Part shown: piece after piece, positions 2-5,247 of the stretch | How the letters are laid out: every line of letters begins with the position of its first letter | Numbering within the stretch: the first letter of the stretch is position 1 | Assembly (NCBI GenBank): GCA_958295945.1 | Contig: OY282386.1 | Coordinates: 3,900,204-3,964,203, forward strand | DNA from: Candidatus Poribacteria bacterium | Lineage (GTDB): Bacteria; Poribacteria; WGA-4E; WGA-3G | Direction of reading: 5' to 3' | Length of the DNA: 64,000 bases | Made by a program: the position numbers and the translations under genes | Notes under the pieces: generated by a model | The model's input: the letters and a program-made list of their open reading frames with translations, nothing else | Database searches by the model: none | What the model was told of the DNA's origin: nothing

Positions 2-820
2 GACAAGATCCTGACCAGTTGGAACGGCATCATGATCCGTGGTATGGCGATAGGATATCAATTAACTGGGAAATCTGAATACCTTACTGCATGTGAAAAA
101 TCTGCTGAATTTGTCCTAACAACACTCTCCCAAGATAATGGACTGCTTTTACGCACCTATCGTGCTGGCAAAAGTCACCTCAATGCATACCTTGAGGATT
201 ACTCTTATTTCATAGCAGGTTTGATCGCATTATACGAAGCAAGTTTTGAACCTAAATGGTTGACTGAAGCGGAACGTCTTGCCAACATTATGATTGACCA
301 ATTTGGTGATCCATCAAATGAGGGATTCTTCTTCACAGGGAAATCACACGAGACTCTCATCGTGCAATCAAAGTCTGCTTATGACGGTGCAACACCTTCT
401 GGGGCATCAATGGCAATTCATAGTCTTTTGCGGCTTGCCAAGCATTTGGACAAACCCGAATTTCATAACAAGGCAGTAGAGACGTTGAAACTCTATTTTC
501 ATCAGATGGATGTGATGCCATCAGGTTCTGGACAGTTGTTGTGTGAGTTAGCGTTTTTATTGTCTACACCGAAAGAGATAGTTATAATTGGTGAAAAAGA
601 AGGGACACAAACCAAAGCGATGTTGGATGCATTACACAACATTTACCTTCCCAATAGAGTTATCGCATTGAGTGATTCTAAAGACGGTAACACCTTGCCG
701 CTCCTCGTAAATAGGTCACAGATAGATAACACTGCCACCGCTTATGTGTGTGAAGATTATGTCTGCAAAACGCCGACAACCGATGTTGACGTATTCTTGC
801 AGTTATTATCAGTAGAATAA
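2..820 (+). CDS. YyaL/DUF255-like thioredoxin-domain protein, C-terminal fragment
   Basis: This is the last 272 codons of a gene that begins before the window; the frame is open from base 2. It starts with KILTSWNGIMIRG, which matches the conserved segment in the alpha/alpha barrel of YyaL/spermatogenesis-associated-protein-20 proteins (N-terminal thioredoxin-like DUF255, then a glycosidase-like toroid). The Y-LEDYSYFIAGLIALYEA stretch and the final GxxxxxxTxAMLDAL part also fit the family. The thioredoxin domain lies outside the window and cannot be checked. The family is widespread but has no settled biochemical role. Family assignment is fairly sure; function is unknown. Confidence 0.82.
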   Translation, partial: DKILTSWNGIMIRGMAIGYQLTGKSEYLTACEKSAEFVLTTLSQDNGLLLRTYRAGKSHLNAYLEDYSYFIAGLIALYEASFEPKWLTEAERLANIMIDQFGDPSNEGFFFTGKSHETLIVQSKSAYDGATPSGASMAIHSLLRLAKHLDKPEFHNKAVETLKLYFHQMDVMPSGSGQLLCELAFLLSTPKEIVIIGEKEGTQTKAMLDALHNIYLPNRVIALSDSKDGNTLPLLVNRSQIDNTATAYVCEDYVCKTPTTDVDVFLQLLSVE

Positions 821-904: not shown

Positions 905-2170
905 TTGAAGTATATTACATGTTGCCAAGTATTTCTCATACTATTAGTTGGTTTTCTAATCGGATGTGGAGAAAGTGAAGAACGAGAACCGATTATCCCA
1001 GTCGTGACATTAGAATTCTTGGGTTACTCTGACACTGACAACGCACAGTTCTCAATAACTGTGAAGCCGAATACTCAAGAGTTGCCGGTATTGGTTGTAT
1101 TCACCTCAGAGGGAAAAGAACCTTTTCATGTTTGGAATGTTCACAAAAGGGGTCCAATAACACAGATTTTTTCGGTGCTACTTGATACCTCTGTCACTTG
1201 GGAAGCTTCTATTGTTGCATATTCAGAGGAAATAACAAAGGAGTATCCTTTGGGACTTTCAGGCATTTCCGTTGATGCTCTAAGCGAATATGTGTTAGGT
1301 GATGCTACACGAGTTACAACAACTCCGTTAGAAATATCTGTTGATAATGAGATTGTTATCCCTGAAGGTATGGTGTTGATTCCAGAAGGTGAATTTCAAA
1401 TGGGTGGAGATGATCCAGAAGCAGAAGATCGTGAAAAACCTGTGCATACAGTCTATGTAGATGCCTTTTATATAGATATACACGAGGTGACTGTTGGAGA
1501 GTATAGTAAGTTTGTCAGAGAAACAGACAGCAATCCGTTACCACCGTGGTCTAATGAACGGTCTCCTACGAGTGAACATCCAGCCGTAGGCATAAGTTGG
1601 CATAATGCGATGGCTTATGCGGTATGGGCAAATAAACGTTTGCCTACAGAAGCAGAATGGGAAAAGGCAGCACGTGGTGGATTAAATGACATGAAATATC
1701 CGTGGGGAAATACTGATCCAGATGGGACACAGTGTAATTATGCCGATAAGAATACTGTTGATCTCGTATGGAATTTTGACGGTGGCGAACAACGGATCAC
1801 TTGGGCAGATGAGGATGTTGATGATGGGTATAGATTCAACGCACCTGTCGGGAGTTTCCTACCGAACCCTTACGGCTTATACGACATGTCAGGCAATATA
1901 TGGGAATGGTGTCTTGATGAATACGATGAAGAATTCTATGCGAACTCTCCGCGTGAGAATCCGATATCAGGCATGGATATAGTTGATATAATAGATAAGT
2001 CATTGTCAATTACCACACCACGGACTATTCGAGGGGGTTCCTATGCATCGGCTTCATCTGAAATGCGTTCTGCACAACGGCATGGAGCTTACCCACGGAG
2101 AGAGTATAACAATGTCGGTTTCAGGTGTGTAAAACCTCTCAAAATAGAACTCAAAAAAGCCGGACAGTAA
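905..2170 (+). CDS. FGE-sulfatase (SUMF1)-domain lipoprotein without the catalytic cysteines
   Basis: The 421-aa protein starts with TTG, chosen because a strong AGGGAGGAAA Shine-Dalgarno sits just upstream and the N-terminus is a lipoprotein signal (lipobox LIGC, Cys21). Residues 22-150 form an uncharacterised linker domain. From about residue 153 to the end is a formylglycine-generating-enzyme fold: GMVLIPEGEFQMGG, RLPTEAEWEKAARGG, YPWGN, YDMSGNIWEWC and VGFRCVK. The family's active-site stretch after RGGSY reads ASASSEMRSAQRHG, lacking the Cys pair used for sulfatase maturation, so it is probably not a formylglycine-generating enzyme. It is likely a secreted, membrane-anchored binding or structural protein. 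A paralogue lies at 58113-59243. Confidence 0.85.
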   Translation: MKYITCCQVFLILLVGFLIGCGESEEREPIIPVVTLEFLGYSDTDNAQFSITVKPNTQELPVLVVFTSEGKEPFHVWNVHKRGPITQIFSVLLDTSVTWEASIVAYSEEITKEYPLGLSGISVDALSEYVLGDATRVTTTPLEISVDNEIVIPEGMVLIPEGEFQMGGDDPEAEDREKPVHTVYVDAFYIDIHEVTVGEYSKFVRETDSNPLPPWSNERSPTSEHPAVGISWHNAMAYAVWANKRLPTEAEWEKAARGGLNDMKYPWGNTDPDGTQCNYADKNTVDLVWNFDGGEQRITWADEDVDDGYRFNAPVGSFLPNPYGLYDMSGNIWEWCLDEYDEEFYANSPRENPISGMDIVDIIDKSLSITTPRTIRGGSYASASSEMRSAQRHGAYPRREYNNVGFRCVKPLKIELKKAGQ

Positions 2171-2193: not shown

Positions 2194-3588
2194 ATGAGTC
2201 TAATTGTGAAGTTGAAAGACATTGGTATCATAAAACAAGCAGAATTTTCACTGGGTGATTTGACAATCATCTGCGGTGAGAATAACACTGGTAAGACGTA
2301 TATTTCATACGCACTTTACGGATTTTTACACTCTTGGAACAACTTTTTTCAACTTCCCATTAGTGATGACCAAGTCAATAGTTTAATAGCAACAGGTTCC
2401 CTTGAGATTGAGACGGAACGAACAGCTGAACAAATACTTAAAGAAACATGTTCCAAATATTCTAAACATCTGAGTAATATTTTCGCAGCGAATGAAGAAT
2501 CATTTCAAAATAGTGAGTTCCATCTCTTCTCAGACAATTTTGGCAGTCAATCCAGACTACCCGGATTTAGAAGAAGTTTTCAAGGACATTTCATTTCCGC
2601 AAGTTTAAGGCGGAGAGGAGATGGTAAACTCAGTTTTACAGCCTGTATAGATAAGAAACCAGGAAGACAGGCTGACCAAGAGCTTGTAAGAGATGCTATA
2701 AAGTTTCGTATCGCCGAAGTTATATTTTTCGGAATTCTTCCTAAAACCTATATTTTTGCATCTGAACGGACTGGTACCACCATCTTCCGAAAAGAACTTG
2801 ATTATGCTCGAAGCCATTTACTTGATGAGATGGGGCATGCGGGAAGCAATAAAGATACACCTCAGTTGTTCTCCAAAGTGTACCGTCGTTATCCTGCTCC
2901 GATCAATGAGAATATTGACTATTCACGTCAACTTGATACTTTTGCTAAAAGTAAAAGTATCATCTCCAAAGAACATCCTGAAGTCTTGGAAGATTTAATA
3001 GATATTGTCGGTGGTGAATATGTTATAACAGAAAATGATCAACTCTATTTTATACCAAAAGGAACAAAGACGCAATTGACGATGGTTGAAAGTTCAAGTG
3101 CTGTCCGTTCATTATTGGATCTCGGTTTTTATTTACGCCACATTGCTGAAAAAGGGGATTTGCTCATGATAGACGAACCGGAACTAAGTCTACATCCAGA
3201 AAACCAACGTCGCATTGCCAGACTTTTCGCCAGACTCGTGAACATAGGAGTTAAAGTTTTCATCACGACACATAGTGATTACATTGTCAAAGAACTGAAT
3301 ACACTCATCATGCTCAACCATGACAAACCGCATCTAAAAGCAATTGCAGAAGAAAACGGGTATCAGCAAAGCGAGTTAATCAAAGCAGATCAAGTTAAAG
3401 TGTATGTGGCAGAAAAAGCGTTGTTGCCTTTGGAAGAAGGACAGAAAAAACGTAGAAGAGCACACACACTTGTACCTGCTGATATTGATTCCGAATTCGG
3501 TATTGAAGTCCGTAGTTTTGACAAGGCAATTGATGCAATGAATAAGATTCAACGAGATATTGTATGGGGTGTAAAGCAAGATAAGTGA
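2194..3588 (+). CDS. ABC-type AAA ATPase of the OLD/AAA_15 group (first of two ATPase/partner modules)
   Basis: The 464-aa ATPase has Walker A GENNTGKT at residues 28-35, a long coiled or helical insertion, a signature-like ESSSAVRSL before Walker B LLMIDEPELSLHP (about 322-334), and an H-loop FITTHSDYIVKELN. This layout is that of SMC/RecF/OLD-like ATPases found in defence and repair systems. No TOPRIM domain is evident after the ATPase core, and the tail (about 410-464) is unassigned. The stop codon overlaps the GTG start of the next gene in a GTGA, so the two are likely translationally coupled. The same layout recurs at 47219-48816. Substrate and role are unknown; a two-component immune or DNA-processing module is inference. 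Confidence 0.82.
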   Translation: MSLIVKLKDIGIIKQAEFSLGDLTIICGENNTGKTYISYALYGFLHSWNNFFQLPISDDQVNSLIATGSLEIETERTAEQILKETCSKYSKHLSNIFAANEESFQNSEFHLFSDNFGSQSRLPGFRRSFQGHFISASLRRRGDGKLSFTACIDKKPGRQADQELVRDAIKFRIAEVIFFGILPKTYIFASERTGTTIFRKELDYARSHLLDEMGHAGSNKDTPQLFSKVYRRYPAPINENIDYSRQLDTFAKSKSIISKEHPEVLEDLIDIVGGEYVITENDQLYFIPKGTKTQLTMVESSSAVRSLLDLGFYLRHIAEKGDLLMIDEPELSLHPENQRRIARLFARLVNIGVKVFITTHSDYIVKELNTLIMLNHDKPHLKAIAEENGYQQSELIKADQVKVYVAEKALLPLEEGQKKRRRAHTLVPADIDSEFGIEVRSFDKAIDAMNKIQRDIVWGVKQDK

Positions 3589-4142
3589 ACGATATAACTA
3601 TATTGCATGAAATGCTCAGTACCGGTGCTCAAGTTCCAATTCAGCAAACTGGTGGAAAGTTCTTTGTCATACTAAAAGACAAGCAAGCAAAAACAACCGT
3701 AGAAATCGCAGAAATTCCCCATGAATCAATAGTCATAAAAGCGGAAGTTTTTAAGCCTCCTAACATTTTCAAAGGTTCAAAGGGAGAACGTAGACGTGCA
3801 GATTTTGTCATAGTTTCTAACACAGAAACGGATAAGTGGATTATCTGTATTGAAACCCAAAAGGGAACTGGAAAAGACCGAGACCATGTTGAACAACAAT
3901 TAAGAGGGGCAGATTGCTTTATCGGTTATTGTAAATGTATAGGAAAGTCATTCTGGCAATCTACAAAATTTCTTGACGACTACCGATACCGATATGTAAG
4001 CATTGTTAATATTAACATTGACAAACAATCTACACGCGCCTACAAACCTACAAACCAGTCCGGCAAAATAGCACACGACAGTCCTGATACTTTTCGAGAA
4101 ATATTTGGACATCAAACTCTCTATTTCAATGAGTTGATCTAA
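3585..4142 (+). CDS. Small partner protein with a possible PD-(D/E)XK-like core
   Basis: The 185-aa protein starts with GTG inside the stop of the ATPase gene (GTGA overlap). I do not recognise a named family. Residues 71-95 read RADFVIV, a short turn, then IICIETQKG: an acidic residue (D73) on one strand followed 17 residues later by E90-T-Q92-K93. This resembles the D...E-x-K core of PD-(D/E)XK nucleases, with Gln in the Lys position, a substitution known in that superfamily. A following helix (HVEQQLRGADCFIGYC) would fit. The downstream partner at 48367-48816 has a comparable core. The nuclease assignment is a hypothesis; the coupling to the ATPase is visible directly. Confidence 0.7.
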   Translation: MNDITILHEMLSTGAQVPIQQTGGKFFVILKDKQAKTTVEIAEIPHESIVIKAEVFKPPNIFKGSKGERRRADFVIVSNTETDKWIICIETQKGTGKDRDHVEQQLRGADCFIGYCKCIGKSFWQSTKFLDDYRYRYVSIVNINIDKQSTRAYKPTNQSGKIAHDSPDTFREIFGHQTLYFNELI

Positions 4143-4148
4143 AACATG

Positions 4149-4958
4149 TCATGTCAACCTGATAACATCCTTCTTAACTATCCCTTTTGTGTGATTAATG
4201 TCTGCATGAGCAATCAACTCTAACGTCTCTGGTGCTAACCGTCCTCTCACCTCTGCAGGCAAACGACTCTCACCACGGTCTTGCGGTCTAAACCGCAAAA
4301 CAAGGAAGCAACGATATCGGTCTTTCGGTATCCAAGGGAGCGCGCCGTGGGTTAAGAGTTCTGAGATAATCACGATATCCCCTGCCTTCGGTGTGATATT
4401 TTCTACACCTGCGGGAAGATCTTCAACATCATCAATAGTTCCGTTGTTGAATATGTGTTCGGGACGATCATATTCAGCTTTGTGTGAACCGGGAACAACT
4501 AACAATCCACCATCACCTGGATACACATCTGTTAGATAAGGGAAAACGACAAAATCATCACAATAGATTTTACCATTTCGGTTTTCAAAACAGTTCTTGT
4601 CTCTTCCATAATCTTCACGCGCACAATGTAACCGCAATGCTTCTCCACCTTCCGGAACACCCACTCTGTCTGCTATCATTGTGCCACGAAACAACTGCGG
4701 TTTATTGTCAGTCAGTTCCTTAATGATAGACCAACTCGCAGGATGTAATGCAAGTGCTTCCAATGCTCTTGAGAAAGCGACTCCGTTTGGTAAGTGTTTT
4801 CCACTGGAGTCAAATCCCGCAGGCAGTTCATCAGGAGGCGTGTTGATGTAACTATCAGCCGCTTCCTGAGCTGCTTTTAATTCAACTCCTGTAATTGCAT
4901 TCTTAAGATGTAGAAATCCAGTAACGTCAAAAAGATATCGTTGTTCAGGTGTCATCAT
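4149..4958 (-). CDS. Phytanoyl-CoA dioxygenase (PhyH) family protein
   Basis: The reading frame opens at 5000, but MMTPEQRYLFDVTGFLHL (start 4958 or 4955) matches the usual N-terminus of this family, so the first 14 codons are probably not translated. The core contains FVVFPYLTDVYPGDGGLLVVPGSHK and a distal metal/2-oxoglutarate motif LLTHGALPW...RYRCFLVLRFRP. These place it among Fe(II)/2-oxoglutarate oxygenases of the PhyH type. The proximal HxD is less clear: LHCAREDYG is the best candidate. The substrate is unknown. It converges on the small partner gene with 6 bp between stops. A second PhyH gene lies at 20798. Confidence 0.85.
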   Translation of the reverse strand: MMTPEQRYLFDVTGFLHLKNAITGVELKAAQEAADSYINTPPDELPAGFDSSGKHLPNGVAFSRALEALALHPASWSIIKELTDNKPQLFRGTMIADRVGVPEGGEALRLHCAREDYGRDKNCFENRNGKIYCDDFVVFPYLTDVYPGDGGLLVVPGSHKAEYDRPEHIFNNGTIDDVEDLPAGVENITPKAGDIVIISELLTHGALPWIPKDRYRCFLVLRFRPQDRGESRLPAEVRGRLAPETLELIAHADINHTKGIVKKDVIRLT

Positions 4959-5247
4959 AATCTTACTCACAATTCGGGTTAATCTAAAGTAAATCAACAA
5001 GTAATGGAATCCGTTCTTCTTCTCTCACCCAACAATCTGCTTAATGGTAGTCAGTTAATATCTCATTATAGTCTTCTGCAGGTCGCAAGATATACTTTTG
5101 GTCTGTATCTGAAAGAATTAGATGAGGGGTATGCATAAGAAACCCAATCTCAAATAAGTATTAGAGTTAGTATGCACAATCCGCATGCCATCCTCAAGAT
5201 CAAAGCTGCACAATAGATTGCGTAACTACTAACTGGACAATTAAATA

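What the first reader, a model, noticed from the sequence alone, without database searches (positions are those of the whole stretch)
2194..4142. Overlapping ATPase and small ExQ-core protein: an unnamed two-gene module
An OLD/RecF-like ATPase lacking a TOPRIM domain is overlapped by 4 nt (GTGA) by a 185-aa protein whose only recognisable motif is D73...E90-T-Q92-K93, compatible with a variant PD-(D/E)XK nuclease. Known two-gene ATPase systems (Gabija, PARIS, Septu) use other partners: UvrD-like helicase, DUF4435 and HNH proteins. That this is a separate defence or DNA-processing module is inference.
Basis: partly seen in the sequence, partly recalled or inferred. Interest (0 to 1): 0.72.

Follow-up and report, generated by a model that had tools for sequence, protein, structure and literature searches.

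The report
PDC-M47 ATPase–nuclease anti-phage gene pair
In a Candidatus Poribacteria genome two overlapping genes encode an OLD/RecF-like ATPase and a small PD-(D/E)XK-type nuclease; they belong to an already catalogued candidate anti-virus system (PDC-M47, sister of the tested system PD-T4-4), and related genomes show that the nuclease and the last part of the ATPase are swapped together like a cartridge.

Summary
Observation confirmed: ATPase A (2194-3588, 464 aa) and protein B (3585-4142, 185 aa) overlap by GTGA. "Unnamed" is wrong: both match PADLOC's candidate system PDC-M47 end to end (A 6e-185, B 4.5e-58). Its sister PD-T4-4 is experimentally defensive, and V. cholerae WonAB has the same make-up. 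The nuclease guess holds: over 81 homologues D73 and E90 are invariant and position 92 is K in 52, Q in 28, T in 1; K93 is not conserved. The B model (pLDDT 89) has the element order of a PD-(D/E)XK core, and 40 of 50 listed structural matches are such nucleases, all at low Z. A is directly upstream of B in 80 of 80 loci across many phyla; two pairs sit inside Type III R-M operons; distant pairs ride small plasmids and prophages. New here: in Poribacteria the pair comes and goes at one fixed slot, and the last ~44 residues of A travel with B while the rest of A follows the chromosome. Most likely mechanism: an ATPase sensor activates a nuclease that aborts infection; trigger and target (RNA or DNA) unknown. 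Ordinary in kind, with one testable twist.

The parts
2194..3588 (+). gene A: OLD-type ABC ATPase, 464 aa, PDC-M47A
   Evidence: PDC-M47A 6e-185, residues 5-459; model closest to PtuA/SMC/Rad50/UvrA heads
3585..4142 (+). gene B: PD-(D/E)XK-like nuclease, 185 aa, GTG start, PDC-M47B
   Evidence: PDC-M47B 4.5e-58, residues 1-185; model pLDDT 89; fold matches
3585..3588 (+). GTGA stop/start overlap (translational coupling inferred)
   Evidence: spacing -4 to +20 nt in 79 of 80 other loci
2275..2298 (+). Walker A of A, GENNTGKT, residues 28-35
   Evidence: sequence; conserved
2314..2793 (+). hypervariable insert of A, residues 41-200 (sensor region by inference)
   Evidence: entropy profile
3160..3177 (+). 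Walker B of A, LLMIDE, residues 323-328 (D327, E328)
   Evidence: sequence; D327 is N in the B-less relative G043
3271..3273 (+). H-loop His360 of A
   Evidence: sequence; invariant
3454..3585 (+). C-terminal extension of A, residues 421-464, co-inherited with B
   Evidence: Mantel r with B 0.83/0.76, with flank gene -0.04/0.18
3801..3803 (+). B Asp73, catalytic-motif Asp in RADF
   Evidence: 81/81
3852..3860 (+). B Glu90-Thr91-Gln92, the (D/E)xK position (K in most relatives)
   Evidence: E 81/81; position 92 K52/Q28/T1
3897..3899 (+). B Gln105, invariant Gln of the following helix
   Evidence: 81/81; aligned Gln invariant in PD-T4-4-type partners
905..2170 (+). flanking FGE-sulfatase-like gene: part of the slot in some genomes, not of the system
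4149..5000 (-). PhyH family dioxygenase, conserved right border of the slot

Best explanation
A two-gene anti-phage module of the PDC-M47/PD-T4-4 type. Protein A is an OLD-type ABC ATPase (presumably a dimer) whose variable insert (residues about 41-200) senses infection; its C-terminal extension (about 421-464) holds protein B. B is a PD-(D/E)XK nuclease with D73, E90 and Q/K92 as metal site. On infection A, using ATP, unleashes B, and B cuts nucleic acid so that the infection is aborted. Shown: gene pair, family, motif, element order of the fold, strict pairing, co-inheritance of the A tail with B, fixed slot with gain and loss. Inferred: A as sensor, tail-B docking, nuclease activity, abortive outcome (by analogy with WonAB). 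Unknown: the trigger, and whether the target is tRNA/rRNA or DNA.
For: PADLOC profiles PDC-M47A and PDC-M47B cover both proteins end to end. PD-T4-4A 9e-146; B versus PD-T4-4-type partners by profile-profile comparison prob 97.6-98.0, E 2.9e-12 to 1.5e-13, with the D, (D/E)xK and Q columns superposed. A directly upstream of B in 80/80 loci found by B alone. D73/E90 invariant, K/Q92; model pLDDT 89 with the PD-(D/E)XK element order and 40 of 50 listed structural matches being such nucleases. A model nearest PtuA, SMC, Rad50 heads, Z about 15. Distant pairs on 4-kb Col plasmids and beside a phage CI repressor; two pairs inside Type III R-M operons. Fixed slot with empty sites and remnants. Tail of A tracks B and not the chromosome. 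Literature: PD-T4-4 protects E. coli (PMC9519451); WonAB needs ATPase and nuclease residues, and WonB stops translation (PMC12137116).
Against: No experiment on PDC-M47 itself was found, and another PADLOC PDC-M candidate tested in its host showed no activity (PMC12409345). Structural Z scores for B are low (best 5.3). In most hosts, the window included, the neighbours are metabolic genes, not a defence island. The tail-B linkage could reflect adjacency in recombination tracts rather than contact. WonB sequences were not compared here.
Confidence: 0.72

Rival explanations
1. Restriction-like rather than suicidal: A recognises invading DNA (ends, structures) and B cuts that DNA directly; the host survives.
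For: Fold neighbours of B are mostly DNases and those of A are SMC, Rad50 and UvrA heads that handle DNA; two pairs lie between mod and res of Type III R-M operons.
Against: The nearest characterised relative in architecture, WonB, leaves genomic DNA intact and stops translation (PMC12137116); the fold cannot tell an RNA from a DNA substrate.
Confidence: 0.2
2. Plain toxin-antitoxin pair: A only sequesters B.
For: Overlapping genes and a small second protein; A retained without B in G043 would fit loss of a toxin.
Against: In G043 A has lost its Walker B Asp (D327N), as expected for decay; for WonAB the authors showed that WonA with intact ATPase is needed for WonB toxicity (PMC12137116).
Confidence: 0.05
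3. Housekeeping DNA repair or processing pair.
For: ATPase of the RecF/Rad50 fold class plus nuclease; stays at one chromosomal slot with metabolic neighbours in Poribacteria.
Against: Present in only 37 of 85 genomes of the phylum, absent from close relatives with an empty or emptied slot; distant relatives ride plasmids and prophages.
Confidence: 0.03

Closest known systems
PDC-M47 (PADLOC-DB candidate two-gene system, PDC-M47A + PDC-M47B)
   Same: Both proteins match the profiles over their whole length, same order and adjacency.
   Different: Nothing that I could test; many relatives have ExK where this one has ExQ. PADLOC lists it as a candidate.
PD-T4-4 (Vassallo et al. 2022, PMC9519451; validated in E. 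coli)
   Same: Homologous ATPase over its full length (9e-146); homologous nuclease by profile comparison with the same D, (D/E)xK and Q columns.
   Different: B matches PD-T4-4_B profiles only weakly and locally (1.6e-4); the ATPase fits PDC-M47A better (6e-185).
WonAB (V. cholerae, PMC12137116) and 'OLD-ABC ATPase + novel REase' (Krishnan et al. 2020, as cited there)
   Same: OLD-type ABC ATPase without TOPRIM plus PD-(D/E)xK nuclease; C-terminal extension of the ATPase predicted to hold the nuclease; the authors state similarity to PD-T4-4.
   Different: Sequences not compared here; WonB is smaller (16.1 kDa against 185 aa).
Septu (PtuA/PtuB) and retron PtuAB
   Same: Closest solved ATPase fold, Z about 15; two-gene ATPase-nuclease logic.
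   Different: Their partner is an HNH protein; here PD-(D/E)XK.
Gabija and PARIS
   Same: OLD-type ATPase.
   Different: Gabija: TOPRIM in the ATPase plus UvrD-like helicase; PARIS: TOPRIM/DUF4435 partner. Neither is present here.

Membership tests
PDC-M47 | ATPase matching PDC-M47A over its full length | tested here: met
   PDLC04664 E 6.1e-185, residues 5-459 of 464, profile 3-459/461
PDC-M47 | partner matching PDC-M47B over its full length | tested here: met
   PDLC04668 E 4.5e-58, residues 1-185, profile 1-183/186
PDC-M47 | A and B adjacent, same strand | tested here: met
   4-nt overlap in the window; A directly upstream in 80/80 loci
PDC-M47 | anti-phage activity | not testable with these tools
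   no experiment found in the held papers
PD-T4-4 | ATPase matching PD-T4-4_A | tested here: met
   9.1e-146 full length, but PDC-M47A scores higher
PD-T4-4 | partner matching PD-T4-4_B end to end | tested here: not met
   only 1.6e-4 over residues 66-119; homologous by profile comparison, so sister, not member
PD-(D/E)XK nuclease superfamily | motif D ... (D/E)-x-K on consecutive strands, followed by a helix | tested here: met
   D73 and E90 81/81, position 92 K52/Q28/T1; D73 before strand 74-79, E90 at the end of strand 84-91 and residue 92 just after it, helix 99-123
PD-(D/E)XK nuclease superfamily | core fold matches solved members | tested here: inconclusive
   40 of 50 listed entries are such nucleases (Can2, Card1, HamA, BsmI, FokI, NucS, Hjc, Shedu, McrC, Cap4), but best Z 5.3 (128 aligned, 4.4 A) and Foldseek E 0.027
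PD-(D/E)XK nuclease superfamily | metal-dependent nuclease activity | not testable with these tools
   needs purified protein
WonAB | sequence homology of both proteins to WonA and WonB | not tested
   V. cholerae sequences deliberately not fetched; architecture and PD-T4-4 similarity taken from PMC12137116
Gabija | TOPRIM-bearing ATPase plus UvrD-like helicase | tested here: not met
   protein ends at 464 aa, GajA profiles match the ATPase core only; partner is not a helicase
PARIS | TOPRIM/DUF4435 partner AriB | tested here: not met
   B has no AriB or DUF4435 match; it matches PDC-M47B
Septu | HNH partner PtuB | tested here: not met
   no HNH match in PADLOC or Pfam; motif is D...ExK

The most novel reading that the evidence does not exclude
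In this family the last ~44 residues of the ATPase plus the whole nuclease form one exchangeable effector cassette: recombination with a break inside gene A replaces the nuclease allele and its docking tail together on a resident ATPase body that stays with the chromosome, so a single locus cycles through effectors (perhaps to escape phage inhibitors) without changing its sensor.
Probability: 0.45. Interest if true: 0.55.

Novelty: new member of a known kind. Interest (0 to 1): 0.42.

Why it matters
It moves the finding from 'unnamed module' to a named candidate with a validated sister, shows that the family motif is canonical D...ExK with ExQ as a local variant, and documents strict pairing over many phyla. 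The co-inheritance of the ATPase tail with the nuclease gives independent, evolutionary support for the docking mode that others only predicted for WonAB, and makes a simple chimera experiment possible: swap tail plus nuclease between relatives and see whether phage range or toxicity follows the body or the cassette.

Tried and rejected
Pfam and NCBIfam have no family for B; phmmer against solved structures gave only spurious-looking caspase hits for B. Scans of viral contigs with B alone or the B alignment found no relative, although A-like relatives with divergent partners are there. Foldseek against viral models gave nothing significant. Defence-island test: among 130 neighbour genes of 36 non-poribacterial loci only a few are R-M genes and most are metabolic, so general defence-island clustering is not shown; no matched background set was run. 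K93 as a catalytic residue was rejected. An A-B complex model was not made (the tool takes single chains, and the two genes are in different frames). The apparent in-frame A-B fusion in L062 is a decayed copy: the A end runs into B without a stop and B ends after about 60 residues. Krishnan et al. 2020 is not held. WonAB of V. cholerae was named and not fetched.

Full report
OBSERVATION. A carries Walker A GENNTGKT, Walker B LLMIDE and an H-loop His, and belongs to AAA_15/AAA_21 in Pfam; B has no Pfam or NCBIfam match.

IDENTITY. PADLOC-DB names both. A matches PDC-M47A at 6.1e-185 over residues 5-459 and PD-T4-4_A at 9.1e-146; B matches PDC-M47B at 4.5e-58 over all 185 residues and PD-T4-4_B only at 1.6e-4. 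So it is a member of the candidate system PDC-M47, sister to PD-T4-4, which protects E. coli (PMC9519451; a review table lists PD-T4-4 with PD-(D/E)XK and P-loop domains). No held paper mentions PDC-M47. 'PDC' stands for phage defence candidate; another such candidate tested in its host showed no activity, so the label is not proof.

THE NUCLEASE. I collected relatives in the phylum (37 of 85 genomes) and in the species genome collection (87 loci, 80 kept: Poribacteria, Caldilineaceae, Latescibacterota, Cyanobacteria, Nitrosomonas/Gallionella, other Gammaproteobacteria, Desulfobacterota, Gemmatimonadota, Binatia). Over 81 sequences D73, E90, R71, A72, Q105 and G108 are invariant; position 92 is K in 52, Q in 28 and T in 1; K93 is free to vary. 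ExQ is therefore a variant of an ExK family. The AlphaFold2 model (50 rows, pLDDT 89, pTM 0.87) runs helix 3-10, strands 25-32, 37-42, 48-52, 74-79, 84-91, helix 99-123, strand 134-141: D73 opens one strand and E90 closes the next, before a long helix, as in PD-(D/E)XK enzymes. Foldseek is weak (FokI nuclease domain, E 0.027); the second look lists 40 PD-(D/E)XK nucleases in 50 rows (my count from the titles), among them Can2, Card1, HamA, BsmI, NucS, FokI, Shedu, Hjc, McrC and Cap4, but at Z 5.3 or less. Low Z alone would be inconclusive; motif, element order and the uniform company together make the assignment likely.

THE PAIR. In 80 of 80 loci found through B alone, A is directly upstream on the same strand, 79 with spacing from -4 to +20 nt and one with a broken A. 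More distant A relatives (28-34% identity) lie on 4-kb Col plasmids of E. coli and Klebsiella, in a Vibrio phage beside its CI repressor, in Bernardetia and in IMG/VR contigs. Of 18 partner genes read next to distant A genes, 17 have D ... [DE]-x-K (the exception follows a broken A; four further loci showed no partner within my search range); in 12 divergent partners D, K and Q are invariant, and profile comparison with our B family gives prob 98.0, E 1.5e-13 (four-sequence version 97.6, 2.9e-12). PADLOC calls the E. coli, Klebsiella, phage and Bernardetia pairs PD-T4-4 and the Annamia plasmid pair PDC-M47.

THE ATPASE. The model (pLDDT 80, low at 193-231) is nearest PtuA of Septu and of retrons, then SMC, Rad50 and UvrA heads, Z about 13-15. 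It has no TOPRIM domain. Residues 41-200 are the most variable part and 301-380 the most conserved.

SETTING. In the window's family the pair often sits between a YyaL-like thioredoxin-domain gene (its 3' end is window 32-820), in some genomes an FGE-sulfatase gene, and an opposing PhyH gene. Eighteen genomes without an intact pair have the two border genes near each other, in G037 only 46 bp apart; others hold an FGE or PhyH paralogue, and two hold scraps of A (54 aligned residues at 74%, 30 at 93%). The pair is thus gained and lost at one slot. G043 keeps A without B, and its A has Asn for the Walker B Asp327. Both genes are under purifying selection, dN/dS 0.04-0.31. In Nitrosomonas (L098) and a groundwater gammaproteobacterium (L099) A-B lies inside a Type III R-M operon, mod - A - B - res, with res starting right after B; a related mod (L084), HsdM with a Schlafen-domain gene (L079), or an N6 methylase (L151) lie near three others. 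Most other settings are metabolic.

A NEW POINT: TAIL AND NUCLEASE TRAVEL TOGETHER. A and B trees of the phylum disagree: A clade {L028, L037, L040} (97*) carries B of both main classes. In 13 systems with the YyaL border gene, A residues 1-40, 41-200 and 201-300 follow YyaL (Mantel r 0.59, 0.64, 0.71; p 0.001 or less) but not B (r -0.01 to 0.11); A 421-440 and 441-464 follow B (r 0.83, 0.76; p below 0.001) but not YyaL (-0.04, 0.18); B does not follow YyaL (0.06, p 0.24). In 29 systems a sliding window shows the same step (0.01-0.21 for every window ending by residue 420, 0.66 for 405-464). Nucleotide identities show it both ways: L030/L042 A 82-96% up to residue 420, tail 76%, B 56-68%; L048/L051 A 75-85%, B 95%. 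Outside Poribacteria the partial correlation of tail with B, given the core, is 0.48. The simplest reading is exchange of B plus the end of A by recombination inside gene A. Because the two are neighbours, tract length alone could cause linkage; that the break lies inside A and not at the gene border suggests that tail and nuclease must match. Most genomes are metagenome-assembled, so single cases could be chimeras, but the pattern spans many assemblies. It agrees with the published AlphaFold3 prediction that WonB sits on the dimerised C-terminal extensions of WonA (PMC12137116).

MECHANISM. For WonAB, ATPase and nuclease residues are required, WonB is toxic only with active WonA, genomic DNA stays intact and translation stops, so the authors suspect tRNA or rRNA (PMC12137116). 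A survey of BREX loci reports OLD-ABC ATPases paired with PD-(D/E)XK and other nucleases in many taxa and reads them as backup suicidal effectors (PMC12839542). I therefore favour: A senses infection, ATP turnover frees or activates B, B cuts nucleic acid and infection aborts. The trigger, the substrate and the abortive outcome are inferred by analogy.

VERDICT. A real and functional-looking member of a catalogued kind. The exchange of the tail-nuclease cassette is the part that I have not seen described and that can be tested.

Noticed in passing
own genome G000: L152:7841-9779(+), L153:6584-8333(-), L154:7056-9051(+): Three more OLD-type ATPase genes, each overlapped by a 162-189 aa partner with a P(I/L)ELK...QL motif; the ATPases resemble PD-T4-4_A only at 1e-35 to 1e-39 and the partners match no PADLOC or Pfam family. 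Possibly a related, uncatalogued ATPase-nuclease subfamily.
   Followed up: partly
own genome G000: L155:6054-7900(-): A fourth pair: NsnB-like ATPase (6e-57) with an overlapping 182-aa partner without any family match and no clear nuclease motif.
   Followed up: partly
L098:3973-11242 and L099:3900-11239: The A-B pair is embedded between mod and res of a Type III restriction-modification operon in two different proteobacteria; res begins a few bases after B.
   Followed up: yes
L150:3623-5026 (G043): A kept in the same slot without B, with the Walker B Asp changed to Asn: a decaying remnant.
   Followed up: yes
L151:4149-8059 (G009): Distant A (39%) with a 199-aa partner (CDYLL...ELKK) and an N6 DNA methylase next to it.
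   Followed up: partly
L168:3104-3496: Small DUF559/Vsr-like ORF in the slot between YyaL and PhyH in a genome without the pair (family guessed from the sequence, not tested).
   Followed up: no
L163, L164, L165, L166, L167, L170, L172, L173 slot regions: Where the pair is missing, the slot usually holds a PhyH-like paralogue of about 291 aa beside the border PhyH gene.
   Followed up: no
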